DNA of 43,894 nt from an uncultured Ignavibacteriota bacterium (lineage in GTDB: Bacteria > Bacteroidota > Ignavibacteria > Palsa-1295), in the NCBI GenBank assembly GCA_903900335.1, contig CAIUMP010000031.1, positions 1 through 43,894 on the forward strand. Direction: 5' to 3'. Positions 27,717-39,344 of the stretch are shown one piece after another (within the stretch, counting starts at the first letter, position 1; each line of letters begins with the position of its first letter). The translations under genes and the position numbers were made by a program. Under the pieces are notes generated by a model. That model worked only from the letters and a program-made list of their open reading frames with translations, was not told where the DNA came from and did not search any database.

Positions 27717-29210
27717 CTATTCCGGTTTCAACGGTCGACCGGCCTCATAATCGAATAGTGTCTTTTGCGTGAGATCCGCAAGTGCCAAATGCACGGCGAC
27801 TTCCGCAGTTAACGATGAGAGCCTCGCTTTTGTGAGGCGTTGCTGTCCAAGTGTGAGATCCTGTGAAGTGATCTTCCCTGCGTCGAACCTGGATCGAGAG
27901 AGCCCGTAAGCCTTCTCAGCTACGGCAACCGACTTTTTCGCAACCTCTACCTGCTTCCGAGCCGATTCCAGTTGTTCGATCGTACTCCGAACCTCCGCTT
28001 CTACCTCTTGCTGCTTAATCGCAAGTGCGGTCCGAGAGATTTCGATTCCGGCCTCAGCTGCATCCATTCGAAGCGAGTGCACCCCCCAATCGAAGATCGG
28101 GACCGATATCAGAAGAGTCAACCCGCGATTGACATAGGGATTCTGCGAGATCAATGAAAGAGAGGTAGCATCCTGGGACGCACCGAAGCTCCCAGTAAGC
28201 GAAGCATTTATTGCTCGCGTGTTCCCTGTTCGCGCCATCGCGTTTTCGCTCCGTTCGATATCAAAACGAGAAGACAAGATATCGGCACGCGCCTCGAGGG
28301 CGCGGTGCACTGCTTCGCCGGGTTCTACTACCATTTCATCACCAGATAGACTATCCAGAGAAGCAGTGATAGGACTTGTTAGTGATTGTCCCAATGCCGC
28401 TTGCAAAGCTCGCTCAGCGGCAAGCAATTGCCGTTCTCGATCAAACAAGTCTGTGCGAGCACTTGCGAGATCCACCTCCAGCTCCAGCGCATCCACTTCA
28501 GCAATCAGTCCTGCTTTGAACTTGTTCGAAGCAAGTTGGTAGTTGGCTGCACTCGCGGCCACTTGCTCCTCTTGGATCGCCAGCTGCTGTTGGTTCTGAT
28601 AGAGATTGTAGAACAGACTCTTGATCGTGTAGTTGATCGTTGCCCAAGCAGTCAGGTACTCTGCGCGCGCAAGTTCGAGATTCATCTCAGACTCTCGCTC
28701 CGAAAGCTTCATCTCATTCGTCTTGAAGATCGGCTGATCCAGAGTGATCGAACCAACACCGAGATAGTCTTGGATACTTTCACCAGCGGCCGTTAGCTGG
28801 GTACGACGATATAGACTGGTGTTAAGGGAAAGTGTGCCACCGGTCCAATAAACGGGTTGTCGAATTGTTAAGCCCGGACCGAACTCTGTAACTCGCGCGC
28901 TGAGAAGGTCCGTTAATCCGCTACTAGGGTTGTATATTGGAGTCGTGTTGTCGGAGTAAATTGGCGCGGCAAGCGTCAGATCAACCTGGGAGCGGAGCGA
29001 ACGGCTCGCTGCCTCAGCATTGTCGCGAGCGATCTCATAGCTACGCTTGGCTTGAATAAGCGCAGGAGCTTGAGAGTGCGCAATGCGAAGGCATTCGTCG
29101 AGCGTAACCGAGCGCTGCGCAATAGCCGTGGAAAGTACTGGGGCGAGTAGGATTGATACATAAAGCAATGTACCAATACTTTTCGCTATTGTTACCATGT
29201 GTCTATTCAT
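27717..29210 (-). CDS. TolC family outer-membrane efflux protein
   Basis: 497 residues; ATG 29210 overlaps the permease stop by 8 bp, while ATG 29198 would avoid the overlap. A signal peptide ending STAIAQ precedes two outer-membrane-efflux-protein repeats rich in long helices (RSYEIARDNAEAASRSLRSQ; later KQQEVEAEVRSTIEQLESAR and YGLSRSRFDAGKITSQDLTL). Such proteins form trimeric channels spanning outer membrane and periplasm. Gene order adaptor, permease, TolC indicates a tripartite MacAB-TolC-type pump. Last gene of the long minus-strand run. Confidence 0.92.
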   Translation of the reverse strand: MNRHMVTIAKSIGTLLYVSILLAPVLSTAIAQRSVTLDECLRIAHSQAPALIQAKRSYEIARDNAEAASRSLRSQVDLTLAAPIYSDNTTPIYNPSSGLTDLLSARVTEFGPGLTIRQPVYWTGGTLSLNTSLYRRTQLTAAGESIQDYLGVGSITLDQPIFKTNEMKLSERESEMNLELARAEYLTAWATINYTIKSLFYNLYQNQQQLAIQEEQVAASAANYQLASNKFKAGLIAEVDALELEVDLASARTDLFDRERQLLAAERALQAALGQSLTSPITASLDSLSGDEMVVEPGEAVHRALEARADILSSRFDIERSENAMARTGNTRAINASLTGSFGASQDATSLSLISQNPYVNRGLTLLISVPIFDWGVHSLRMDAAEAGIEISRTALAIKQQEVEAEVRSTIEQLESARKQVEVAKKSVAVAEKAYGLSRSRFDAGKITSQDLTLGQQRLTKARLSSLTAEVAVHLALADLTQKTLFDYEAGRPLKPE

Positions 29211-30522
29211 ATCGGAGCGACTCTATCGGATCTTTGCGAGCGGCCTGTCGCGCTGGATAGTAACCAAACGCGATGCCCGTCGCAACGCTTACGCCGAATG
29301 CCACGATCATCGAGATGGGTGTTAGTACTGTTCGCCACTCGGCATACATGGAGATCGCCCTCGTCATAGCATAACCTAGTATCAATCCCATGATCCCGCC
29401 CGACATGGACAGCATCACAGCCTCAGCTAGGAATTGGGAAGTAACAACTCGTGCAGTTGCACCGAGAGCGCGACGAATTCCGATCTCACGCGTACGTTCG
29501 AGTACGCTCGCGAGCATGATGTTCATGATTCCAATTCCGCCAACGAGAAGAGAGATGCTCGCGATGGCGAGCATGACGATATTAAAGATACGCTGCGTCG
29601 CTTGCGATTGGCGCAGTAACTCTTCCGGCACCGTGACGGCGAAATCTTCGACCTTGTTATGTCGGCGCGTAAGGATGCGACTGATGATTGCCGCCGATTC
29701 GCCCGCATCGGCATCGGCCTTGAGCTTCACCGTGATCTGGTCAATTGGTGGCGAAGCCTTGTTGCTTCCGTTGAAGGAATACATGCCCCCGCCCCCGAAT
29801 ATCGTGACGTTTCCACCATTGTCGTCTTTATCCTTTTCGCGACCAAACTTCGTCTCAGATGTGGTTACCGGTACGTAGACATCCATGTTTGGATCGCGCT
29901 CACCAGGACTGGAGTACTTTGCTTCATGTGCCTTTTCTTCCATCACACCGATCACCGTGAACCACTCGTCGCCAAGCTTGAGATGCTCTCCGAGCGCTGG
30001 ACCGAATTGAAAAAGCTTACGCCTCGCTGTCGATCCAATAACACAGTAATTCGCCATTGACTGCATATCCGCACTCGAAATGAAACGTCCTTCTTTCAGA
30101 GTCGTGGGATAAAGGACCGTGTACGTGGGGGTTACACCGAGAACCATTAGATCTGTATGTTCACCACCATGGAAGGCGTGTTTGTGATGTTCGGCGTTCG
30201 CCTCGACAGCTTCCGCAAATGTGCATTCAGAAAGGATCGCATCAGCGTCCTTGGTCGTAAGCCCAAGTGAGTTGGTTACTTTCGATTGATCTTTCCCGCG
30301 CTCTTTCTGCGCTTCTTCGGACACAGCTTTGACGATAATGTTATGTAACCCCATTACGGAGATCTGTTCCATCGTCTCTTGCCGGGCGCCCTCACCAATC
30401 GAGAGCATCGCCACAACGGCCCCAACTCCAAAGACGACCCCAAGTACCGTCAGCATAGAGCGAACCTTGTGCGCAAGGACGCTCTGGAGACTCATCTCTA
30501 TTATTTCCGACAAGTTAAGCAT
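29203..30522 (-). CDS. MacB/FtsX-type ABC transporter permease (no ATPase domain)
   Basis: 439 residues. N-terminal cytoplasmic/TM1 segment SVLAHKVRSMLTVLGVVFGVG, a large periplasmic (MacB_PCD-type) domain, then three C-terminal membrane helices starting IVMLAIASISLLVGGIGIMN, followed by MLASVLERTREIGIRRALGA, the coupling motif, and the ending YYPARQAARKDPIESLRYE. This is the MacB/LolCE-type mechanotransmission permease. E. coli MacB carries its ATPase on the same chain; here there is none, and no separate ATPase gene is in the neighbourhood. Lies 29 bp after the adaptor gene and overlaps the TolC-like gene. Confidence 0.92.
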   Translation of the reverse strand: MLNLSEIIEMSLQSVLAHKVRSMLTVLGVVFGVGAVVAMLSIGEGARQETMEQISVMGLHNIIVKAVSEEAQKERGKDQSKVTNSLGLTTKDADAILSECTFAEAVEANAEHHKHAFHGGEHTDLMVLGVTPTYTVLYPTTLKEGRFISSADMQSMANYCVIGSTARRKLFQFGPALGEHLKLGDEWFTVIGVMEEKAHEAKYSSPGERDPNMDVYVPVTTSETKFGREKDKDDNGGNVTIFGGGGMYSFNGSNKASPPIDQITVKLKADADAGESAAIISRILTRRHNKVEDFAVTVPEELLRQSQATQRIFNIVMLAIASISLLVGGIGIMNIMLASVLERTREIGIRRALGATARVVTSQFLAEAVMLSMSGGIMGLILGYAMTRAISMYAEWRTVLTPISMIVAFGVSVATGIAFGYYPARQAARKDPIESLRYE

Positions 30523-30551
30523 TAGGTTCGAGGATTTTTGAAGTGGGATTC

Positions 30552-31850
30552 TTAAACTTTCGGCTTCCCATCACTCTTCCCCGGCTTGTCCTCTTTTTCA
30601 GTAGCCTTGTTTGGATCGGTCAAACTAACCTTCTCGCCTTCTTTGAGACCCTTTGCAACAATCACGAAATTATCATTTTTCGTCCCAAGTGTGACCGGGC
30701 GTCTTTCGAAGGATGAACCGTTCTCCACATAGACTACGGGCTTGCCTGCATCATCAAAGACAGACTCGATCGGCACCGAGATAACATTATCAACTTTGCT
30801 CACCATTATGCGCGCTGCGACCGTCATGCCGGGACGCAGAACTGAATCGGCTGCATCGAGATCCACGAGTACCTCGAAAACCTTTACGCTGGGGTTCGAC
30901 TCCTTTGCGTTGCCAATGGATGCAACACTCTTGATCTTACCCGTAAACTTCTTATCCGGAAATGCATCAAGCGTAACCTCAACTGCCTGATCGTTCTTCA
31001 CCTTGCTCACATCCACTTCGTTGACTTCCAGCACAGCTTGCATGTGCGAGAGATCGGGCAGTTGCATCACAGGCTGTCCGCCCCAGAGCTGATCGCCTTT
31101 GCCGATCTTCTTGCCGGTATTCCAATTCCGATTATAGACGATGAGCCCGCTAGCGGGGGCATGAACGGTGAGGCGTTCGAGATCGAGCGTGGCGCGTGAT
31201 AGTGCGTTTGTGATCTGCGCGATCCGTAAGTCCAGGCTGGCAAGTTCGCTCTTCCGCACGGCGGTTTTGCCTTTCAGGTTTTCGTCCGCTTGCTTGAATG
31301 CAAGCTCCGCTTTCTTCAGCTCCAACTGCGACTCCCGCTGTTTTGCATCCGACTCGAACTTCATCGCATCGTTCGCAAGCTTGGCAAGTTCAAAACTTAG
31401 CTTCGCGTTCTCGTAGGCGATCTCCGCGTCGGACTTATCGGATTTTTGCTGTGCCCGCAATTTATCCATATCCGCCTGAGCAAGCTTGAGGTCGTTCTCT
31501 TTGTCCGAGATATTCTTTAGCTGATCGGCCTGATCGAACGTCACGACGACCGCGCCACTATCCACCGTGGTGCCTTCGGGCGCGATATACTGCACGGCAA
31601 GCTGCGAGCGGCCACCGGAGGTCATCACCGGGGAGGTAACCGAGCGCGAGTGCTCCGCCTGCAACTCGCCCGTCTCCACGACGACAATATCGAACGTGCC
31701 GCGTTTTGCGGTTGCCGTTAGGTGCGCCGACGCGCTGCCGCCAAAGAGCGAACGGACGGGGAAGTACGCGATGACAACAAGCGCCGCGGCAGCGAGGAGC
31801 TTGTTACGGCGTGTCCAGAAGGTTTTGCGGGAAGTGGAAGGGGCACTCAT
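30552..31850 (-). CDS. MacA/HlyD-type periplasmic adaptor (membrane fusion) protein
   Basis: 432 residues from ATG 31850 (MSAPSTSRKTFWTRRNKLLA); the longer frame runs back into the repeat at 31890 and is not plausible. One N-terminal membrane anchor (LLAAAALVVIAYFPV), then lipoyl-like halves (VVVETGELQAEHSRSV and LTVHAPASGLIVYNRNWNTG) flanking a long alpha-helical hairpin (about 120-215, KLAQADMDKLRAQQKSDKSD ... ). Beta-barrel and membrane-proximal domains follow (VEVTLDAFPDKKFTGKIKSV, VLRPGMTVAARIMVSKVDNV, VPIESVFDDAGKPVVYVENG). The C-terminus is Lys/Asp-rich. It bridges the permease to the TolC-like channel. Confidence 0.92.
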   Translation of the reverse strand: MSAPSTSRKTFWTRRNKLLAAAALVVIAYFPVRSLFGGSASAHLTATAKRGTFDIVVVETGELQAEHSRSVTSPVMTSGGRSQLAVQYIAPEGTTVDSGAVVVTFDQADQLKNISDKENDLKLAQADMDKLRAQQKSDKSDAEIAYENAKLSFELAKLANDAMKFESDAKQRESQLELKKAELAFKQADENLKGKTAVRKSELASLDLRIAQITNALSRATLDLERLTVHAPASGLIVYNRNWNTGKKIGKGDQLWGGQPVMQLPDLSHMQAVLEVNEVDVSKVKNDQAVEVTLDAFPDKKFTGKIKSVASIGNAKESNPSVKVFEVLVDLDAADSVLRPGMTVAARIMVSKVDNVISVPIESVFDDAGKPVVYVENGSSFERRPVTLGTKNDNFVIVAKGLKEGEKVSLTDPNKATEKEDKPGKSDGKPKV

Positions 31851-31889: not shown

Positions 31890-31926
31890 GAAAGTGCAAC
31901 GACCGGAGAGGGGAAATGTTTCAGGG
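31890..31926. repeat. 37-bp element, copy B (after thioredoxin-like gene B)
   Basis: Matches the copy at 34375-34411 at 35 of 37 positions (GAAAGTGCAACGACCGGAG at one end, GGGAAATGTTTCAGGG at the other). It lies ~20 bp past the stop at 31945. Confidence 0.8.
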
Positions 31927-31944
31927 GGACGTGGGGAGGTCGAG

Positions 31945-32439
31945 CTAATGCGCCGTTTTACTGTGCAGCAGTTTGCGGAGCTTTGGACTAAGGTCACCGT
32001 CGAACTCATCGTGTTTTATCACGCCGAGGCAAATTCCAGTCTTCCGCTCATACACGGCAAGACCATCATCGACAGCCAAGTGCAGGGAAGTACGAATGTC
32101 GCCGTGATCGACAATAGCACGATGAGCCCAACTATAGTTGCGGATGAATGACTTCAATTCGCGTTCGCGCGCTACACTAACGGCGGCAACCAACGTAACT
32201 TTTTCGGCGCTGGCGGGCATGGTGTTGACGGAAGCCACCGCTTCATCCGCGAGCGCCACACACTTGATGCAATCACCCGGTGTAATAAGTAACACAGCGA
32301 CATAAGGCTGGTGAGAATCCCCGGCAAGTGAATCGAGCAGAGCAATTGGCGCGGCTTGAGCCGCAGCACGGTCAATCCCTGCCGCTTGCATGGCAACGGC
32401 AAACACAAAAAGAAAAGTTAAGCGAAAGATTGTCCTCAT
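31945..32439 (-). CDS. Exported thioredoxin-like protein with GDCIKC motif (module B)
   Basis: 164 residues; its ATG overlaps the stop of the propeller lipoprotein (ATGA, 32436-32439). A signal peptide (MRTIFRLTFLFVFAVAMQAA, cut near DRAAAQ-A) exports it. A strand YVAVLLITPGDCIKC ends in a CxxC pair (Cys57, Cys60) at the start of a helix, as in thioredoxin folds; later VTLVAAVSVARERELKSFIR and the end GVIKHDEFDGDL fit the fold. No cis-Pro motif is obvious, so redox activity is uncertain. Paired with the same type of gene in module A. Confidence 0.75.
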   Translation of the reverse strand: MRTIFRLTFLFVFAVAMQAAGIDRAAAQAAPIALLDSLAGDSHQPYVAVLLITPGDCIKCVALADEAVASVNTMPASAEKVTLVAAVSVARERELKSFIRNYSWAHRAIVDHGDIRTSLHLAVDDGLAVYERKTGICLGVIKHDEFDGDLSPKLRKLLHSKTAH

Positions 32440-33701
32440 AAACTATATCGTATCATCTCCCAGGTTTCATGCTTCGTATGGCGAAGAACGATGAGGTCAT
32501 CAATAGCACTTGAGTAGAATACAGCCTCAAGCTTATCCGTCGGGGAGCCGAGGATTGTTTGGGCTTTCAGATCTCCGTCTTCCGTGTACTCCTGCACATA
32601 CCAGGAGAGGTTGTGCTGCGGGTCGGCAATTGCGGAACAGACGATGATGTTGCCAGAAGGACGGACGCCTAACGACCATACTGTAACCGGCTTCGTCAAC
32701 GCAAGACTATCCCATACAACTTTCAATTTCGGGTGAGCACTGTATTTTCGCATCAGTTCGAACATTCGGCTATTATCTTTTGGAAGCTTAAGGTTAAAGC
32801 TGGCTCCACTTGAAAGATTGCGAATCTCTAGGGACGGGCCGTACCCAACGAATATAGAGCGATCAGGCGCAAAGCCTACAAGATTCCGGTGGTAAGAGTA
32901 TCCCAAACGTCTGATTTTACATTCAGACGGAACAGAGCAAAGCTTTGCGAGTACATTTCCATTCGTGTCTACACGGACAAGGGTGACTGCGGAATCAAAA
33001 CGTACACTATCAAAAGCGCTTATGTCCATTGCTGACATGAGGTAGCTCTTCCGCAGACCATCCCAAAACCCGTCATATGCTAATGTGCAAAAATAACCAC
33101 GCCAGAGGGGAAGCACAAAAGAAGGATGTTCACGGCTAAGGGAATAGGTTAATATTGCTGTAGCTGCCCCTGCCCAAACGTCTTCATGGTTCTGCATGAA
33201 GGTTTTTACGTTTGCGGCAATCACTATTGTGGTGTCAGTTTTGAAAAACGCAGCGCCAAGCCGCTGGACAACACTTTGTTCTAAAAACTTCCGTGTTTCG
33301 TCGGCAGGATTTGGTTGAATTTTGTAATACTGAGCGCGCGTATAATATACCACCGTATCACAACCTGGAGTCCCGGTATAGAAGGGACTTGGCATATTCC
33401 GTGCGAGCGAGTCACCAAGGCCAGGATATCCTTGGAAGTGGCGGAGAAGTCTTCCGCTCTTCAATGAGTAGAGGAAGACTCCGCCGCCGCTTGCATCACC
33501 TATTAGAACCTTGGTCCCATCAGGACTCACATCAAGCGAGTTTACACTGCTTATTAGTGCGGTGTCAGTTTCTTCGATCTCCACCGAGGCTGTCATTCTA
33601 ATGGCAAGAGGGGCAAGCTGCCCCGCTTTGCAGCCGAACAGCAAAGCACACAAGACAAAGATCACAGCTTGGCTGCGGATTGTATAGACCCCTGATATCA
33701 T
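32436..33701 (-). CDS. Beta-propeller-like lipoprotein (module B)
   Basis: 421 residues. Lipoprotein signal MISGVYTIRSQAVIFVLCAL with lipobox LFGC. The mature part opens with a beta-propeller-like stretch (ISSVNSLDVSPDGTKVLIGD, then VFLYSLKSGRLLRHFQGYPG) and continues with blade-like repeats of hydrophobic strands (RNLVGFAPDRSIFVGYGPSL; KPVTVWSLGVRPSGNIIVCS; AVFYSSAIDDLIVLRHTK). It resembles the 6-bladed beta-propeller lipoproteins of Bacteroidota, though no family can be named. Located after the small CxGxGxC peptide gene and coupled to the thioredoxin-like gene. Colinear with the gene at 34914-36203. Confidence 0.75.
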   Translation of the reverse strand: MISGVYTIRSQAVIFVLCALLFGCKAGQLAPLAIRMTASVEIEETDTALISSVNSLDVSPDGTKVLIGDASGGGVFLYSLKSGRLLRHFQGYPGLGDSLARNMPSPFYTGTPGCDTVVYYTRAQYYKIQPNPADETRKFLEQSVVQRLGAAFFKTDTTIVIAANVKTFMQNHEDVWAGAATAILTYSLSREHPSFVLPLWRGYFCTLAYDGFWDGLRKSYLMSAMDISAFDSVRFDSAVTLVRVDTNGNVLAKLCSVPSECKIRRLGYSYHRNLVGFAPDRSIFVGYGPSLEIRNLSSGASFNLKLPKDNSRMFELMRKYSAHPKLKVVWDSLALTKPVTVWSLGVRPSGNIIVCSAIADPQHNLSWYVQEYTEDGDLKAQTILGSPTDKLEAVFYSSAIDDLIVLRHTKHETWEMIRYSL

Positions 33702-33763
33702 CTAGAGCGTGAAAGGATTTGTTCCATGGTGATCAATGATAGTGCACGTAGTGTCTGATACCA

Positions 33764-34060
33764 CTACTCATCGAGTGTAGCATATCCGATTGGATCGTCA
33801 CTAGGCGGTTGTATGGCGTGGAAACCATCATTAACGTGGAGTCCGGAGCCGTCTGCGGTGGCACATATGCCTCCCCCGTCACAACTCCAAAAGACTTTTT
33901 TGCCATCAAGCGATTGGCTTGTGCCTGATGCTTTACCCACCGTTCCGGAATGTATGGTCCAGTTCCCCGGAAAATCCGTGGCGTATGAACCGGTATTTGA
34001 CACCAAAACCGCTGTGAATAATGGAATCGCGGTTAAAGCCGCAATTAGGCCTTTTTTCAT
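33764..34060 (-). CDS. Small exported CxGxGxC peptide (module B)
   Basis: 98 residues from ATG 34060, giving signal peptide MKKGLIAALTAIPLFTAVLV ... SYA-T; the longer frame adds 10 residues. The mature ~70 residues are Gly/Ser-rich and acidic at the end. The only cysteines are Cys60 and Cys66 in SCDGGGICATADGSG. The peptide at 36255 carries the same C-x-G-x-G-x-C spacing and neighbours. The spacing would allow a small disulfide loop. Such a small exported peptide beside a propeller lipoprotein recalls the NVEALA-peptide loci of Bacteroides, by analogy only. Start has no Shine-Dalgarno. Confidence 0.65.
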   Translation of the reverse strand: MKKGLIAALTAIPLFTAVLVSNTGSYATDFPGNWTIHSGTVGKASGTSQSLDGKKVFWSCDGGGICATADGSGLHVNDGFHAIQPPSDDPIGYATLDE

Positions 34061-34091
34061 TGTGATTACTATTTGAGAAACATTAAACACA

Positions 34092-34116
34092 CCCCGCGAT
34101 GTGAATCATCACGAGG
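34092..34116 (-). promoter_or_regulatory. Leader hairpin, copy B
   Basis: On the minus strand CCTCGTGATG-ATTCA-CATCGCGGGG pairs over 10 positions including two G-T pairs. It lies ~32 bp before the peptide start. The equivalent place in module A (36592-36613) also holds a hairpin of different sequence. Confidence 0.5.
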
Positions 34117-34120
34117 TAAC

Positions 34121-34275
34121 TCCCCCTCTCCCCAAAAGCTGGATCGCGTACGAAGGATGGCCTGTCCTTCGAGCCAGCAATTAGCAGAGCGAGGTTATAG
34201 GTAAGAGTGTTTTCGCGGGCGAAATGGGACAGACAAAATTCGTTTTTTGGAGATTTATTCTTAGGCTTCGTTTTT
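34121..34275 (-). repeat. ~155-bp leader direct repeat, copy B
   Basis: Nearly identical to 36616-36772 (shared landmarks CTCCCCAAAAGCTGG, GAAGGATGGCCTGTCCTTCG, AGCCAGCAATTAGCAGAGCG, ATGGGACAGACAAAATTC). Includes a hairpin with 7-nt loop (CGAAGGA-CAGGCCA-TCCTTCG). Sits directly upstream of peptide B, and continues to about 34275, where it matches bases from the end of the sigma-like gene of module A. Confidence 0.85.
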
Positions 34276-34374
34276 GTCAGTTTGGACCTGTGAGAGAAGT
34301 GCCCAAAGGTTTTTTTCGGGGTACTCATGGAGAGGGATTCGGGCGAAAGCTATGTGGTAGTTTACAGCACCAGA

Positions 34375-34411
34375 GAAAGTGCAACGACCGGAGGAGGGAA
34401 ATGTTTCAGGG
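34375..34411. repeat. 37-bp element, copy A (after thioredoxin-like gene A)
   Basis: Second copy of the 37-bp element at 31890-31926 (two mismatches), ~40 bp past the stop at 34451, the same relative place as in module B. Confidence 0.8.
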
Positions 34412-34450
34412 AGCAGTGGACTCCGAAGGAGCAAGTAAGTGCCCGGAGGA

Positions 34451-34909
34451 CTACCTATTGCCTCGTCCTTCGACCACGCGAAGGAAGTCTTTGCAACTTG
34501 CCCCCAAGAATGCGTCCTGTGAGAATATGTGTAGAACCCTCCCCTTTCCACTTAGTATGGCAAGCCGTGAGGAATTAGGTATCCCAAGCGCAGCCAGTTT
34601 GCCTCGGTCGGGATAAGCAGGTAGCGTCCAATCTGTTCCTTGCGTAAATAGCGGGACTTCTTTTTCGCGTTCACAATTGACTACTGCAAATGCATGAATA
34701 GTCTTCCTTTTCGCCGAGAGCTTTAAGCAAGCAAGGTTCTCCCTGAATTTCGTGATGCATTTCTGACAATCACCTACCTGGCCTACAAAAAGCAGTATGC
34801 GATCATTAGCCCTAATGTGCTGCTTCGCGATAACCCAGTCCATAAAATCAGGAGGGGTTTTAGTGGGAACCGAGAACAAGAGCATGAGCGAAAGCAGAAT
34901 AGAAGCCAT
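34451..34909 (-). CDS. Exported thioredoxin-like protein with GDCQKC motif (module A)
   Basis: 152 residues from ATG 34909, 5 bp after the propeller gene's stop; a longer frame overlaps that gene. Signal peptide MASILLSLMLLFSV. A strand RILLFVGQVGDCQKC ends with CxxC at Cys48/Cys51. The context GDC-x-KC is identical to the module B protein. The later part has a beta strand AFAVVNCEREKE, WTLPAYPDRGK and RLAILSGKGRVLHIFSQ, consistent with a thioredoxin-like core; LPAYP could be the cis-Pro strand. Likely periplasmic oxidoreductase or binding partner for a neighbouring exported protein; substrate unknown. Confidence 0.75.
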   Translation of the reverse strand: MASILLSLMLLFSVPTKTPPDFMDWVIAKQHIRANDRILLFVGQVGDCQKCITKFRENLACLKLSAKRKTIHAFAVVNCEREKEVPLFTQGTDWTLPAYPDRGKLAALGIPNSSRLAILSGKGRVLHIFSQDAFLGASCKDFLRVVEGRGNR

Positions 34910-34913
34910 GCGC

Positions 34914-36203
34914 CTAATTTCCCCACCGATACGTAGCGAGCTTCCAGCCATCCGGCGACTGAACCGTGACCAATACTTGATCGTTTTGGGGATCGTAGGT
35001 CGCATAAAGAGGCATCCCAATACTCAAATTATACGGCAACTCCATCTGCTTGAGTAGGTCACCGTCCAGCGAATACTCTTGAATTACAAAAATGTACTTC
35101 CACGGGTACCACTGAATCTTATTGCTTGTGACAGCAATAATGGTGTTCCTCTTTGAAACAGAGATGTTGAGCATCCATACGCGAATGAGCGCACCAATAC
35201 TATCCATATTAACACTCTTCTGATGACGCATGAATACAGTCTTTCCTGCGCGAAAGAAAGTGTCGTTGTTGAAGGGAAGGTTTTTCAATTCGAAGGACGT
35301 CCTGTTAGCTAGATCATAAATTCGAGGAAGTGTGTTAAAAGCCGCGTGGGGATGATCCGAACTGTCCAAGCACAGGTGCGGCCTCATGTTGCCGTAGTCA
35401 ATTACGGAGTTATGGCATTCTGGCGGTAGAAGCGCCAAATCAACCAATTTCTTTCCGCTTGAAGCAAACGAGGCTACTGCCCACATCGAGTCGTATAGGT
35501 TCTTCTTGAATCCAAGCCAATATTCCTCATCAAGATAAACAACACTTCTGTCCCTTGAACACGTCAAGCCATTACATTCTTGGTAGATCTGGTACTCGTT
35601 TACTCTTTGATGCTCCGTCGGAATTATTCGGTACTTCCCGTCACGCGTGTTTGCAATAACCAAGGTAGTGAACTTAGCGATGTTCGTAGGCATACTGAAC
35701 GAGGGGTCCTCCCTCGCTCGTGCGAACGCCAAGACATGCCCGGCTAATAGTACTTCCGTGTCATTCAAAAATATGCCATTCTCGAGCGCATTTGGAAGGT
35801 TCTTCCTCTGAAGCAGGAGTGGCATTGCTCGGCCGATTGAGTCTCTGATATGGTCTCCCCTCATTAGTACAAGATGGTCAAAGAAGTGAGGATTGATCGC
35901 CACAATCGAGTCGGACATGGATGCACTGAAGTAATAGGATCTAATTAGTCGACCGGATCTTGAAAATATGGAACCTCGACCAGTGCTTTCGTCAACGAGC
36001 AAGACTTCCTGCCCGTCCGGACTCAAGCTTAAGTTCTGCACCTCATGAATGATTGTGTCTCCGGGTTCATCGAGTGCAACAAGAGAGACAAGCGCAGTTG
36101 AGTCAATAGTAGAGGGCTTCGTCGCGGCGGCACCCGTGCATGAAAACACAGGTAGCAGCATACAGATTATACCTAGATGTCTCAATTTGTTGACAGTTCG
36201 CAT
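34914..36203 (-). CDS. Beta-propeller-like lipoprotein (module A)
   Basis: 429 residues with lipoprotein signal (MRTVNKLRHLGIICMLLPVF then SC). The mature N-terminus, VALDEPGDTIIHEVQNLSLS PDGQEVLLVDESTGRG, parallels the module B protein (SSVNSLDVSPDGTKVLIGD). Blade-like strands continue to the end (DQVLVTVQSPDGWKLATYRW). It is followed by the thioredoxin-like gene 5 bp away and preceded by the peptide gene ~50 bp upstream. Probable role: periplasmic or surface binding/sensing of a partner. Exact family not identifiable by eye. Confidence 0.75.
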   Translation of the reverse strand: MRTVNKLRHLGIICMLLPVFSCTGAAATKPSTIDSTALVSLVALDEPGDTIIHEVQNLSLSPDGQEVLLVDESTGRGSIFSRSGRLIRSYYFSASMSDSIVAINPHFFDHLVLMRGDHIRDSIGRAMPLLLQRKNLPNALENGIFLNDTEVLLAGHVLAFARAREDPSFSMPTNIAKFTTLVIANTRDGKYRIIPTEHQRVNEYQIYQECNGLTCSRDRSVVYLDEEYWLGFKKNLYDSMWAVASFASSGKKLVDLALLPPECHNSVIDYGNMRPHLCLDSSDHPHAAFNTLPRIYDLANRTSFELKNLPFNNDTFFRAGKTVFMRHQKSVNMDSIGALIRVWMLNISVSKRNTIIAVTSNKIQWYPWKYIFVIQEYSLDGDLLKQMELPYNLSIGMPLYATYDPQNDQVLVTVQSPDGWKLATYRWGN

Positions 36204-36254
36204 GTGCTGGTCACAAGAGAGGGAACCCGTTCAGCCCGAGTTCCCCCATGAGTA

Positions 36255-36563
36255 TCAGTTATTGATTAGTGTACCTGAATCCTGGGATGCATCGTTGGGA
36301 TCATAACCGTTGTCAGGCTGATTTATCACTCCTTTAACAACCAATGTATGTCCCCCATTTGTGGTATACCAGCAATTCCCTGTTCCGGAACAATGGACCG
36401 TCACCGTTCCATTTGGATTAGTTGTCCCTGTGCCACAATTCCCCGTGATAGCAGGTCCACTCCATGTTCCTGGCCCATTAAACTCTTGGTCAGCGTGAAG
36501 GACGCCTATTGCCGGGATTGCCAATATCAGCCCCAAGACAAAAAGACTTATCTTCTTTCTCAT
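36255..36563 (-). CDS. Small exported CxGxGxC peptide (module A)
   Basis: 102 residues. Signal peptide MRKKISLFVLGLILAIPAIG ... LHA-D. The mature ~78 residues are rich in Gly, Asn, Thr and end NQPDNGYDPNDASQDSG. Cysteines: Cys43, Cys58 and Cys64, the last two in HCSGTGNCWYTTNGG, the CxGxGxC motif shared with peptide B. The segment after it also aligns (GGHTLVVKG versus GSGLHVNDG). First gene after the leader repeat, so translated first within the module. The start has no Shine-Dalgarno sequence, as often in Bacteroidota. Confidence 0.65.
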   Translation of the reverse strand: MRKKISLFVLGLILAIPAIGVLHADQEFNGPGTWSGPAITGNCGTGTTNPNGTVTVHCSGTGNCWYTTNGGHTLVVKGVINQPDNGYDPNDASQDSGTLINN

Positions 36564-36591: not shown

Positions 36592-36613
36592 CACCGTGCT
36601 ATCATGCACGGTG
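36592..36613 (-). promoter_or_regulatory. Leader hairpin, copy A
   Basis: CACCGTGC-TATCAT-GCACGGTG (or its complement) forms an 8-bp perfect stem ~30 bp upstream of the peptide start. Same position as the hairpin at 34092-34116, different sequence. Confidence 0.5.
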
Positions 36614-36615
36614 CG

Positions 36616-36772
36616 TTCCCCCCCTCCCCAAAAGCTGGTTCGCGATCGAAGGATGGCCTGTCCTTCGAGCCAGCAATTAGCAGAGCGAGGTTAATAGTAA
36701 GAGTCGTTTCGCACCCAAAATGGGACAGACAAAATTCATTTTTTTGAAGATTTATTTTTGGGCTTCGTTCGG
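36616..36772 (-). repeat. ~155-bp leader direct repeat, copy A
   Basis: Near-identical to 34121-34275. It overlaps the 3' end of the sigma-like gene and runs to the peptide A leader hairpin. Includes the TCGAAGGA-CAGGCCA-TCCTTCGA hairpin. It probably carries the promoter and leader of each module; the unit appears duplicated with its genes. Confidence 0.85.
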
Positions 36773-37312
36773 GCTGGCTTTTTGCCGGCGGGGGGGGGGG
36801 GCAGAAATTCCCTGCTCGCGTAGCATCTCCCGTTTTGCCTCCTCGCGTAACTTCCCCATCGCGCGAGTGTACCGCTTGCGAATGGTCTCCACTTTTTCAC
36901 CCAGCGTGGTTGCCAACTCACTAAAGGGAATATCAAAAATGGTGTGCTGCATCACAAGCTCCTCCTCGTGCTGCTCGAGCATCTTCAAAAGGCTCATCAT
37001 ATCGATCGTTGCCTCCGCTCTCTGCGCCGCACTTTCCTCATAGATCGGTTCGAGCAACAACGCTTCAATAGAAATAAAGCGCTTTCCATAGCCGAGCATG
37101 TTCTTAACAGCATTGCCAGCAACGACGATGGTCCAATCCTCTCGTTTGCCACGTCGTTCAATATCTGCCGCCTTCGGCTCAATCAGCCACTGCTCGCGGG
37201 CATGTGCCAAAGCGTCTTCAACGTCCTGTCGCTGGGCCTTACGGAAAATTCCGTGAAGCCTCATTTGAATGTTCCACCAAAACTGCTTCTCAACTTCCGA
37301 CATTACTGGCAT
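36752..37312 (-). CDS. Divergent RNA polymerase sigma-factor-like protein with a homopolymer tract
   Basis: 186 residues from ATG 37312 (37303 also possible); a longer frame has no family character upstream. Helical, no signal peptide. The C-terminal half has a region-4-like helix-turn-helix: LKMLEQHEEELVMQHTIFDI, then PFSELATTLGEKVETIRKRYTRAMGKLREEAKR. Region 2 is weak (MRLHGIFRKAQRQDVEDALA HAREQW). It lies directly before module A and could activate it. The last codons cross a run of 12 G (12 C on the coding strand). With the run as given the tail reads APPPRRQKASPNEAQK. One base fewer gives APPPAGKKPARTKPKNKSSK and a stop at 36736. Confidence 0.65.
   Translation of the reverse strand: MPVMSEVEKQFWWNIQMRLHGIFRKAQRQDVEDALAHAREQWLIEPKAADIERRGKREDWTIVVAGNAVKNMLGYGKRFISIEALLLEPIYEESAAQRAEATIDMMSLLKMLEQHEEELVMQHTIFDIPFSELATTLGEKVETIRKRYTRAMGKLREEAKREMLREQGISAPPPRRQKASPNEAQK
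36790..36801. repeat. 12-base G homopolymer in coding sequence
   Basis: Twelve consecutive G in the last ~20 codons of the sigma-like gene; possible slippage site. Confidence 0.9.
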
Positions 37313-37410: not shown

Positions 37411-38526
37411 TTACAACGGCGACTTCACCACCCATGCCCGGTGAATCACGGCGTCTGGAAAGCGAGAATCTCGCGTGGTAAAGATGAACGCAAACTGCGA
37501 TTCGGTTGCTTCCGTTAGCGTGCGGTCGTTCACTTGTTTCTTTGCTCGCTTGCCTGGTGTGGAGGCTGTGAGGAAATCGAGGACATTGTCTCTCGTGAGA
37601 TCCGGATTGGCCCCGTTTGTTGGTGCAAGCGCGATGGCTTCCGTCGCCCAGGCGCGCAAATGTTTGTGCCATGCAGATGTGAACATCTCGTGCGAACCAT
37701 ACATATCTCCGCCGACAATCTTTCCATCCAGCGCATATATTGCCCCGACGGAATGCTCTATGTTGGAGGCGAGATCACCAAAGTGTTTCTCGTAAGAGTT
37801 TCTGGGCACGTCGAGCGATTTGCTTTCGAGCGCAAGTTGCAAACTCGTTGGAGACGGATTCCGGGTGACGCTGTCCTTCAGATTATTCGAGAGAGCAGTT
37901 TGCGTCTGCGCCACATCATGCCAGATGGATTCCTGCACCGCGTCACTGCCAATGCTCTCGAACTGCGGCATGGTGCCAAGCGCCTCCAGCAGTTTTAGTT
38001 GATCGGGATCCGGAGCAGTACGACCACCAAGATGTGGCGTGAGAAGCATCCCCGTCAACTCATGCTGAGCGATGACCCGCATGTGGTGCATCGGTGCCAT
38101 TTCGTGTGATGCACTAAATGTCTCGATCGGCTCCGCACCACGCTTGAAGGAACGTCCCTTCTCCACACAATAGACATTGAGGTCGCGCGAGGTGTCATGC
38201 CCAGCGACGACCATGTCGCTTGCAACCATGCGATCCTGCTGCCCGCCTTTGAGAATTGCCGAGGACTCGATGAAGAGATCAGTGTCCGAGCGATTCTCGA
38301 TCCACAGCTTCTGACTATTATTCTCGTGAATTACCGCTCGACCTGTTGCAAGCGCCCTTTCCAATGTGACATACGTGTGAGGGACATCGTCCCGCAACTC
38401 AATCGGAAATATCGTCAGCCTTCCATAGCTTCGCGGCTCGCGAACGATGAGCGAGTCCAGCGAGGCATGCGCCGACATCGGCAGGAATACGACAACAACA
38501 AGAGTAACGAAGATCGACCGAATCAT
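37411..38526 (-). CDS. ARPP-1 / DUF6569 family exported protein
   Basis: 371 residues from ATG 38526 (MIRSIFVTLVVVVFLPMSAHA-S signal peptide); the longer frame adds unlikely residues. Family pattern: TYVTLERALATGRAVIHENN, LWIENRSDTDLFIESSAILK GGQQDRMV, VVAGHDTSRDLNVYCVEKGR. C-terminal half is less typical (ASNIEHSVGAIYALDGKIVGGDMYGS). The family was named for association with ARG and rhodanese/phosphatase proteins and has no clear enzymatic role. Exported to the periplasm here. Located between the SIMPL protein gene and the sigma-like gene, all on the minus strand. Confidence 0.78.
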   Translation of the reverse strand: MIRSIFVTLVVVVFLPMSAHASLDSLIVREPRSYGRLTIFPIELRDDVPHTYVTLERALATGRAVIHENNSQKLWIENRSDTDLFIESSAILKGGQQDRMVASDMVVAGHDTSRDLNVYCVEKGRSFKRGAEPIETFSASHEMAPMHHMRVIAQHELTGMLLTPHLGGRTAPDPDQLKLLEALGTMPQFESIGSDAVQESIWHDVAQTQTALSNNLKDSVTRNPSPTSLQLALESKSLDVPRNSYEKHFGDLASNIEHSVGAIYALDGKIVGGDMYGSHEMFTSAWHKHLRAWATEAIALAPTNGANPDLTRDNVLDFLTASTPGKRAKKQVNDRTLTEATESQFAFIFTTRDSRFPDAVIHRAWVVKSPL

Positions 38527-38642
38527 GACCAGACCAACGGAGAAGCCTACCCGATAAAATCCCGCCGACGCACACTCCGACTCCCTAGGGTGAAGCAAGC
38601 CGGCGGAGCCAAGGCGTCGAAACCCCGCTTAGGTTGAAATTT

Positions 38643-39344
38643 CTACTTCAATTCGAAGACGACCTTCAACTCGGCTTTCTCCGTCAATGTATTTGGCTGT
38701 GCCTGTTGGCCTTTCTTCCCCTCACGCTCTTCGCGCTCCTCTTCGCTTCCAGCCGGCGCAGACTTTCCGCCGTCTTCCGCTTCGGAGATAGAGACGATAT
38801 CCCCGATCGACTTGCCCATTCCCTTCGCGAGCGCTGCTGCCTCTTTCTTTGCGTTCGCGATCGCACTCTTCATCGCATCCTCGTGCAGCGTGCGTCCACC
38901 ACCCAAGCTAAAGGCACCAACTGCAACAGAGCCAGCACCATTTGCCGTAGCGAGATCGATCAGGCGAGGCAAGTCCTTCACCTCTTCAAGTTCAACATCA
39001 AGCGGCGTATCCATACGGTACCCGATAATGCGTGTCCCGGCTTGACCATACTCCATGTTCGGCAACAGGCGAAATGGCTGTACGGCGATATCGCCAGCTT
39101 TTACGCCACCATCGACAAGTGCTTTCTTCAGTCGTGATACGACATCATTTTGCTTGACAAAGAGGCCAGTCGCAGTCTGATCCTGACTGGAAACAGTGAA
39201 CTGCAATGACACGCGATCCGCTGCAGCGCTCGCGCTGCCAGATGAAAGCACCGTGAGGGTGCGCTCGCTCGACTGGGCCCTAACTGCACCTGCGAGGCCC
39301 ATCACTCCGCACATGATCGCTACGAATGTAAGATTCGATTTCAT
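38643..39344 (-). CDS. SIMPL domain (DUF541) periplasmic protein
   Basis: 233 residues. Signal peptide MKSNLTFVAIMCGVMGLAGA-VRAQ. SIMPL landmarks: RTLTVLSSGSASAAADRVSL, QPFRLLPNMEYGQAGTRIIG YRM, AKKEAAALAKGMGKSIGDIV and ELKVVFELK. A Lys/Glu/Gly-rich insert (EEEREEREGKKGQQAQP) precedes the last strands. Members are periplasmic or outer-membrane proteins of uncertain function (E. coli YggE reduces oxidative stress). First gene of the long minus-strand run. Confidence 0.9.
   Translation of the reverse strand: MKSNLTFVAIMCGVMGLAGAVRAQSSERTLTVLSSGSASAAADRVSLQFTVSSQDQTATGLFVKQNDVVSRLKKALVDGGVKAGDIAVQPFRLLPNMEYGQAGTRIIGYRMDTPLDVELEEVKDLPRLIDLATANGAGSVAVGAFSLGGGRTLHEDAMKSAIANAKKEAAALAKGMGKSIGDIVSISEAEDGGKSAPAGSEEEREEREGKKGQQAQPNTLTEKAELKVVFELK

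What the first reader, a model, noticed from the sequence alone, without database searches (positions are those of the whole stretch)
31945..36563. Two tandem copies of a three-gene secreted-peptide module
Seen: 36563-34451 and 34060-31945 have the same order on the minus strand: ~100-aa exported CxGxGxC peptide, ~425-aa lipoprotein with SPDG-type beta-propeller start, exported thioredoxin-like protein with GDC-x-KC. Both copies share leader DNA, a leader hairpin and a 37-bp downstream element. Established: small exported peptides next to 6-bladed propeller lipoproteins occur in Bacteroides (NVEALA loci), but I recall no described version with this peptide. Inferred: a system to make, bind or mature secreted peptides.
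Basis: partly seen in the sequence, partly recalled or inferred. Interest (0 to 1): 0.85.

Follow-up and report, generated by a model that had tools for sequence, protein, structure and literature searches.

The report
Variable secreted-peptide, propeller and thioredoxin cassettes
Two side-by-side sets of three genes make a small exported peptide, a propeller-shaped lipoprotein and a thioredoxin-like helper; the same trio recurs across related bacteria as fast-changing cassettes and most likely makes a disulfide peptide with its matched receptor, though no function has been tested.

Summary
Two tandem minus-strand trios (36563-34451, 34060-31945) encode a ~100-aa exported CxGxGxC peptide, a ~425-aa propeller lipoprotein and an exported CxxC thioredoxin-fold protein. 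A third trio lies elsewhere in the genome, and full trios occur in five families of the class. Of 18 strong peptide hits in 391 genomes, 17 directly precede a propeller gene; the 18th is at a contig end. Peptide dN/dS is 0.24-0.29, so these are real genes. The layout matches Bacteroidia NVEALA loci, and the closest solved fold is DUF4221, which neighbours an NVEALA peptide there; but these peptides are not NVEALA. Two points are new. (1) Copies are mosaics: A/B flanks are 88-89% identical while coding DNA is near the alignment floor; elsewhere two modules share a thioredoxin gene at dS 0.03 with peptide/propeller dS ~0.9. Cassettes are apparently exchanged or locally homogenised. (2) The only long G/C runs in 159 kb of genus DNA end 226-242 bp before three peptide genes, in a sigma-like gene where visible, suggesting phase variation. 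Best explanation: a diversifying peptide-receptor pair with a dedicated thiol oxidoreductase. Mechanism inferred, untested.

The parts
36752..37303 (-). Sigma-70/ECF-like regulator gene upstream of copy A (183 aa from ATG)
   Evidence: TIGR02937 E 5e-8 but below its curated cut-off; Sigma70_r4 E 2.7e-4; a like gene also precedes the C50, G410 and G418 trios
36790..36801 (-). Run of 12 C (on the - strand) in the 3' end of the sigma-like gene; candidate slippage tract
   Evidence: One of only three G/C runs of 9 or more in 158.8 kb of genus DNA, all upstream of peptide genes
36617..36769 (-). Copy A leader, repeated in front of copy B
   Evidence: 131 + 30 bp at 89-90%; 153 bp at 88% by blastn
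36634..36674 (-). Leader hairpin 1, copy A
   Evidence: RNA fold, whole leader z -4.65
36592..36613 (-). Leader hairpin 2, copy A (8 bp, perfect)
36255..36563 (-). Copy A exported peptide, 102 aa, CSGTGNC
   Evidence: member of family A9 with invariant Cys pair
34914..36203 (-). Copy A propeller lipoprotein, 429 aa
34451..34909 (-). Copy A exported thioredoxin-like protein, 152 aa, GDCQKC
34375..34419 (-). 45-bp downstream element after copy A
   Evidence: 89% identical to 31890-31934
34083..34328 (-). Junction frame: HlyD-like start (MSTPKKTF) joined to a sigma-gene tail; scar of the tandem duplication
   Evidence: Translations and alignment
34121..34272 (-). Copy B leader, repeat of the copy A leader
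34138..34178 (-). Leader hairpin 1, copy B
   Evidence: RNA fold, whole leader z -2.16
34090..34118 (-). Leader hairpin 2, copy B (12 pairs; same position as in A, different sequence)
33764..34060 (-). Copy B exported peptide, 98 aa, CDGGGIC
32436..33701 (-). Copy B propeller lipoprotein, 421 aa
   Evidence: Model pLDDT 77; best solved match 3s9j DUF4221, Z 21.5
31945..32439 (-). Copy B exported thioredoxin-like protein, 164 aa, GDCIKC
   Evidence: Model pLDDT 84; DsbE/ResA-type matches, Z 12.1
31890..31934 (-). 45-bp downstream element after copy B, before HlyD

Best explanation
Each copy is a cassette for an exported, disulfide-containing peptide, a matched propeller lipoprotein that binds it at the cell envelope, and a dedicated periplasmic thioredoxin-fold thiol oxidoreductase that sets the redox state of the peptide's conserved cysteine pair. 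Shown here: the trio, its recurrence, the two folds, the invariant Cys pair, purifying selection on the peptide, and mosaic evolution in which peptide and propeller diverge together while flanks, or the thioredoxin gene, stay nearly identical. Inferred: binding, disulfide handling, diversification of the peptide-propeller pair by recombination through conserved ends, and control by the upstream sigma-like factor, whose gene carries a slippage-prone tract, so that expression may vary between cells. The most likely role is recognition between cells or strains (signal and receptor, or peptide and protector).
For: Co-occurrence: 17 of 18 strong peptide hits directly precede a propeller gene. All 20 inspected peptides carry the Cys pair and the neighbouring protein has an invariant CxxC in a DsbE/ResA-type fold. 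Propeller fold like DUF4221. Purifying selection on the peptide. Peptide and propeller diverge as a unit while the Trx gene can be shared: G674 c/d Trx dS 0.03 against 0.86 and 0.96; in G674 a/b and the G121 array one Trx gene follows several propellers. Young flanks around old cargo in A/B. G/C tracts at a fixed distance. Peptide-propeller distances correlate after removing Trx distance, partial r 0.53-0.55 (confounded by phylogeny).
Against: No binding, redox or expression data. The Trx-like proteins show no proline at the usual cis-Pro position, so oxidase or isomerase activity is uncertain. Some loci lack their own Trx gene (L178; first pair of L066) and one array has three propellers with no peptide found (L060), so the trio is not obligate. 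The sigma-like gene is seen at only four loci. Tract and cassette variation are inferred from single assemblies.
Confidence: 0.45

Rival explanations
1. Narrow-spectrum toxin and protector: the peptide is a secreted bacteriocin-like molecule, the propeller lipoprotein protects the producer, and the Trx-like protein folds the peptide. Fast diversification of the pair is an arms-race signature.
For: Small exported disulfide peptide next to a lipoprotein; pairwise diversification and patchy presence, two of seven genus genomes; an ABC-type HlyD-MacB-TolC exporter follows the module in the window and in G121:C138.
Against: A 420-residue propeller is large for an immunity protein; peptides are acidic, unlike most membrane-active bacteriocins (general knowledge); no match among the defence models of PADLOC; the pump is not linked to the module elsewhere.
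Confidence: 0.2
2. Envelope structural or coat protein: the peptide is a surface subunit or ligand displayed on the propeller lipoprotein, varying to escape phages or predators, without signalling or killing.
For: Slippage tracts and conserved-end mosaics resemble surface-antigen variation; lipoprotein anchor.
Against: No direct evidence of surface display, and no known surface-layer or fimbrial family matched.
Confidence: 0.15
3. Subunits of an envelope enzyme: the propeller is the large subunit, the peptide a small cross-linked subunit and the Trx-like protein its maturase, as in methylamine dehydrogenase (MauA, MauB, MauD).
For: Same three kinds of protein (propeller, small Cys protein, Trx-like maturation factor) as in the mau operon, from general knowledge; the propeller model also aligns to sugar dehydrogenases and lactonases.
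Against: No conserved tryptophan pair or other cofactor-type residue in the peptides, where only the Cys pair, one Gly and one Leu are invariant; propeller sequences diverge too fast for a shared active site; best structural rows are non-enzymatic propellers.
Confidence: 0.08
4. The conserved flanks of copies A and B reflect constraint on a regulatory leader rather than recent duplication or exchange, and the coding parts simply diverged since an old duplication.
For: The leaders fold better than shuffles (z -4.65 and -2.16) and could be a regulatory RNA.
Against: The copy B repeat includes a sigma-gene tail with no sigma gene in front of it, which should not be constrained. In G674 a Trx gene has synonymous divergence 0.03 while its neighbours have about 0.9, which protein constraint cannot explain. 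Identical-end mosaics recur in G121, G632 and G410/G418.
Confidence: 0.15

Closest known systems
NVEALA peptide loci of Bacteroidia (PF14055 next to PF13970, PF17170 or PF15869 propellers)
   Same: Small exported Cys-containing peptide beside a six-bladed propeller lipoprotein, several pairs per array, and a CTSC thioredoxin-like lipoprotein in the array.
   Different: Peptide sequence unrelated: no PF14055 match and no NVEALA motif; in the profile comparison only the signal peptide aligns. The NVEALA arrays have about one Trx-like gene for several pairs and no sigma-like gene was seen beside them.
DUF4221 propeller (PF13970; structure 3s9j, BVU_1028)
   Same: Best structural match of the copy B propeller, Z 21.5, 321 residues, 3.8 A; a DUF4221 gene directly follows an NVEALA peptide in L182.
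   Different: 7% identity and no PF13970 match by sequence; profile similarity to NVEALA-neighbour propellers is limited to the first blade.
TlpA/ResA/DsbE-type periplasmic thiol oxidoreductases
   Same: Thioredoxin fold, CxxC at the helix start, signal peptide; weak profile match to ResA.
   Different: No proline at the usual cis-Pro position; too divergent for Pfam in the window copies; a separate gene tied to a peptide-propeller pair.
Phase-variable, recombination-diversified surface or secreted loci of other bacteria (general knowledge)
   Same: Homopolymer or short-repeat tracts in an upstream regulator, and conserved ends with diverged middles between copies.
   Different: No population data here; slippage and exchange are inferred from single assemblies.

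Membership tests
NVEALA peptide family (PF14055) | Match to the PF14055 profile | tested here: not met
   No match for any of 15 family members at E up to 1; none in the own genome
NVEALA peptide family (PF14055) | NVEALA-type motif after the signal peptide | tested here: not met
   Motif absent from the alignments; profile comparison aligns only 19 signal-peptide columns
NVEALA-type locus (layout) | Peptide gene next to a six-bladed propeller lipoprotein gene | tested here: met
   17 of 18 strong peptide hits; the same in L182 and L183
NVEALA-type locus (layout) | Thioredoxin-like CxxC protein in the locus | tested here: met
   Both window copies and most relatives; CTSC proteins in L182 and L183
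DUF4221 (PF13970) | Profile match | tested here: not met
   No match at E up to 1 for the 19 propellers
DUF4221 (PF13970) | Fold | tested here: met
   3s9j Z 21.5, 321 aligned, rmsd 3.8
TlpA/ResA-type thiol oxidoreductase | Thioredoxin fold with CxxC at the helix start | tested here: met
TlpA/ResA-type thiol oxidoreductase | cis-Pro before the fourth strand | tested here: not met
   No conserved proline at that place in alignment A7; judged from sequence and model, not from a solved structure
TlpA/ResA-type thiol oxidoreductase | Thiol-disulfide exchange activity | not testable with these tools
   Needs purified protein
ECF/sigma-70 factor (gene 36752-37303) | Region 4 helix-turn-helix | tested here: met
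   Sigma70_r4 E 2.7e-4, below cut-off; C50 relative over the Sigma70_r4_2 cut-off, 26.9 against 25.7 bits
ECF/sigma-70 factor (gene 36752-37303) | Region 2 (core binding, -10 recognition) | tested here: inconclusive
   TIGR02937 alignment spans 28-164 of 165 at E 5e-8 but below its cut-off; no region 2 domain match
Methylamine-dehydrogenase-like enzyme | Conserved tryptophans for a cross-linked cofactor in the small subunit | tested here: not met
   Only the Cys pair, one Gly and one Leu are invariant in the peptides
Bacteriocin with immunity protein | Killing activity and specific protection | not testable with these tools
   Needs an assay; no match for the trio in PADLOC or PHROGs

The most novel reading that the evidence does not exclude
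An undescribed recognition system of Chlorobiota/Ignavibacteria-type bacteria: phase-variable, recombination-diversified peptide-propeller pairs with their own thiol oxidoreductase, of which the NVEALA loci of Bacteroidia are a distant branch, so that the whole peptide-propeller-thioredoxin class would be one envelope recognition system across Bacteroidota.
Probability: 0.3. Interest if true: 0.85.

Novelty: new variant of a known kind. Interest (0 to 1): 0.62.

Why it matters
NVEALA peptides and their propeller neighbours are Pfam entries whose function I do not know, and the library held no paper that names NVEALA. Finding the same plan with an unrelated peptide sequence in a distant class suggests that the plan, not the peptide sequence, is what selection keeps. 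It makes a testable prediction: cognate peptide-propeller binding that depends on a disulfide handled by the neighbouring thioredoxin-fold protein. The mosaic divergence and slippage tracts suggest a conflict or recognition locus, which tells experimenters what to test first.

Tried and rejected
Plasmid, phage or viral cargo: no match in plasmids (propeller), phages (Trx) or viral contigs (propeller). Known defence or phage family: none for the trio. Known RNA family in the leader: none at E up to 1; the one weak match, E 0.28, lies inside the propeller gene. Leader as a coding extension of the sigma gene: differences by codon position 5/5/10 in 150 columns, no clear coding signal. Efflux operon as part of the module: HlyD-MacB-TolC follows copy B and also one G121 pair, but orthologous pumps in G008 and G009, and more distant relatives elsewhere, have no module beside them. 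Clean empty site in the genus: the ARPP/SIMPL side is recognisable but the other side differs among relatives, so no simple insertion boundary was obtained. Literature: NVEALA gave no paper; DUF4221, DUF5128, DUF4934 and propeller terms gave none on such loci among those listed. The first named-genome query was too divergent; a narrower alignment gave nine loci.
Full report
WHAT IS THERE. Both trios exist at the reported places on the minus strand and are homologous gene for gene. Copy A is 36563-34451 and copy B 34060-31945. Each has a ~100-residue exported peptide with C-x-G-x-G-x-C, a ~425-residue lipoprotein with a lipobox-like motif and an SPDG-type repeat, and an exported ~155-residue protein with GDCxKC. 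No Pfam or NCBIfam family covers the trio. A and B share 131 bp of leader at 89%, or 153 bp at 88%, and a 45-bp downstream element at 89%.

MORE COPIES. A third trio lies on another contig of the same genome, and a related trio in one other genome of the genus; of the seven genus genomes searched only these two carry it. Profile searches of the class found full trios in four more families: f10 (G172, G121, G207, G674, G616, G561), f11 (G410, G418), f8 (G222) and f6 (G117). Partial sets occur in f5 (G035, propeller and Trx), f6 (G156, peptide and propeller) and f10 (G632, peptide and propeller at a contig end). The G561 and G117 peptides are diverged variants that the peptide profile did not list. 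G343 (f3) has a further-diverged set with a PF17170 propeller and a Redoxin protein. Named records behind several loci are MAGs labelled Bacteroidetes, Ignavibacteria, Chlorobiota and, for one, Desulfobulbaceae, which is probably a mislabel.

CO-OCCURRENCE. A peptide profile searched alone in 391 genomes of the class gave 18 strong hits (E below 1e-7); the rest were weak. Of the 18, 17 sit directly upstream of a propeller gene and one is at a contig end (L179). Three strong hits were not in the profile's training set, and both that can be judged (L127, L178) are next to propellers. Trx-like genes follow at most but not all of these: L178 has none, and two pairs in L066 share one.

PROTEINS. 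The Trx-like protein of copy B is predicted as a thioredoxin fold (pLDDT 84) with CxxC at the helix start; its best rows are DsbE- and ResA-type structures (Z 12.1 and 11.5) and its family profile weakly matches ResA. No proline is conserved at the cis-Pro position, so it may be atypical. The propeller of copy B is predicted at pLDDT 77; the best solved match is 3s9j, a DUF4221 protein of Bacteroides vulgatus (Z 21.5, 321 aligned, 3.8 A), followed by six-bladed NHL domains and 4raa from B. fragilis. Mature peptides are acidic overall and glycine-rich; all 20 inspected carry the Cys pair, usually followed by an aromatic residue and then xIxGxxL.

SELECTION. The peptide pairs close enough to measure have dN/dS 0.24 and 0.29, so the short frames are real genes under purifying selection. 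The A/B pair itself is saturated at synonymous sites and says nothing on this.

MOSAIC EVOLUTION. This is the strongest new point. Between A and B, flanks are 88-89% identical, while coding DNA is about 40% identical in windows, near what global alignment gives unrelated sequence, with synonymous sites at or near saturation (pS 0.70-0.86). The flank in front of copy B includes a sigma-gene tail joined to an HlyD-like start, that is, the junction of a ~2.49-kb tandem duplication. Such a remnant has no evident reason to be constrained, so the flanks look young and the cargo old. In genome G674 two modules have Trx genes at dS 0.03 while their peptides and propellers have dS 0.86 and 0.96; the peptide's signal-peptide codons and one propeller segment are also nearly identical. 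Arrays in G121 and G632, and G410 against G418, also show near-identical ends and diverged middles. I infer exchange or conversion of cassettes through conserved ends, with peptide and propeller diverging as a unit. Distance matrices agree (partial r 0.53-0.55) but are confounded by phylogeny.

REGULATION. A sigma-70/ECF-like gene lies upstream of copy A, C50, G410 and G418. In 158.8 kb of genus DNA the only G/C runs of nine or more are three: 12 C in the window, 14 G in C50 and 19 C in G009. They end 226, 242 and 241 bp before a peptide start; in the first two the run lies in the 3' end of the sigma-like gene, and the G009 contig is cut there. The G418 sigma-like gene instead holds 12 copies of a hexamer, which keeps the frame. 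This looks like slippage-prone sequence, but only population reads can show phase variation. The leaders of A, B and C50 fold better than shuffles (z -4.65, -2.16, -4.64), with hairpin 2 formed by different sequences in A and B at the same position; leaders elsewhere are mixed.

COMPARISON WITH KNOWN LOCI. NVEALA (PF14055) is absent from the own genome and present in Bacteroidia-type genomes of the phylum, where most peptide genes neighbour a PF13970, PF17170 or PF15869 propeller lipoprotein and a CTSC thioredoxin-like lipoprotein lies in the array. The plan is the same, but the window peptides are not NVEALA and the propellers are not PF13970 members by sequence. Profile comparison of the two propeller sets gives 87% probability over the first blade only. 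So it works like an NVEALA-type locus as far as layout shows, and it is a new sequence variant of that kind, not a member of the NVEALA family.

MECHANISM. Most likely the peptide is exported, its cysteine pair is handled by the neighbouring thiol oxidoreductase, and it is bound by the cognate propeller lipoprotein, with cassette exchange and possibly phase variation generating diversity, as expected for recognition or conflict. Shown: gene content, folds, conservation, selection and mosaic pattern. Inferred: binding, redox action, control and role. Toxin-protector, coat and enzyme-subunit readings remain open at lower probability.

Noticed in passing
window 36790-36801; L015 4684-4697; L016 56-74: The only G/C runs of 9 or more in 158.8 kb of genus DNA lie 226-242 bp upstream of three peptide genes; candidate slippage (phase-variation) tracts.
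   Followed up: partly
L069 5248-5319: Twelve copies of a 6-bp unit inside the sigma-like gene upstream of the G418 trio; in-frame length variation of a Thr-Gly linker is possible.
   Followed up: no
window 27717-31847; L214 1456-7435: An HlyD-MacB-TolC operon directly follows copy B, and also follows a peptide-propeller pair in G121:C138, same strand and order; orthologous pumps in G008 and G009 have no module beside them.
   Followed up: partly
L062 5063-7129: Right after a normal trio in G207 comes a second set with a different Cys-rich 164-aa exported protein, a 360-aa exported protein and a CKEC thioredoxin-like protein.
   Followed up: no
L060 2330-6619: Three tandem propeller genes with near-identical ends and diverged middles, one Trx-like gene and no peptide gene found.
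   Followed up: partly
L126 2858-3823: G525 carries a propeller copy broken by an in-frame stop, between the same neighbouring genes where G674 has two intact peptide-propeller pairs.
   Followed up: no
window 37411-39344; L090-L095: The ARPP-1 and SIMPL genes beside the module are neighbours in most genus genomes, but the side where the module lies differs among them; one has a Cas9-like 1134-aa protein nearby (the Cas9 call is from reading the sequence start only).
   Followed up: no
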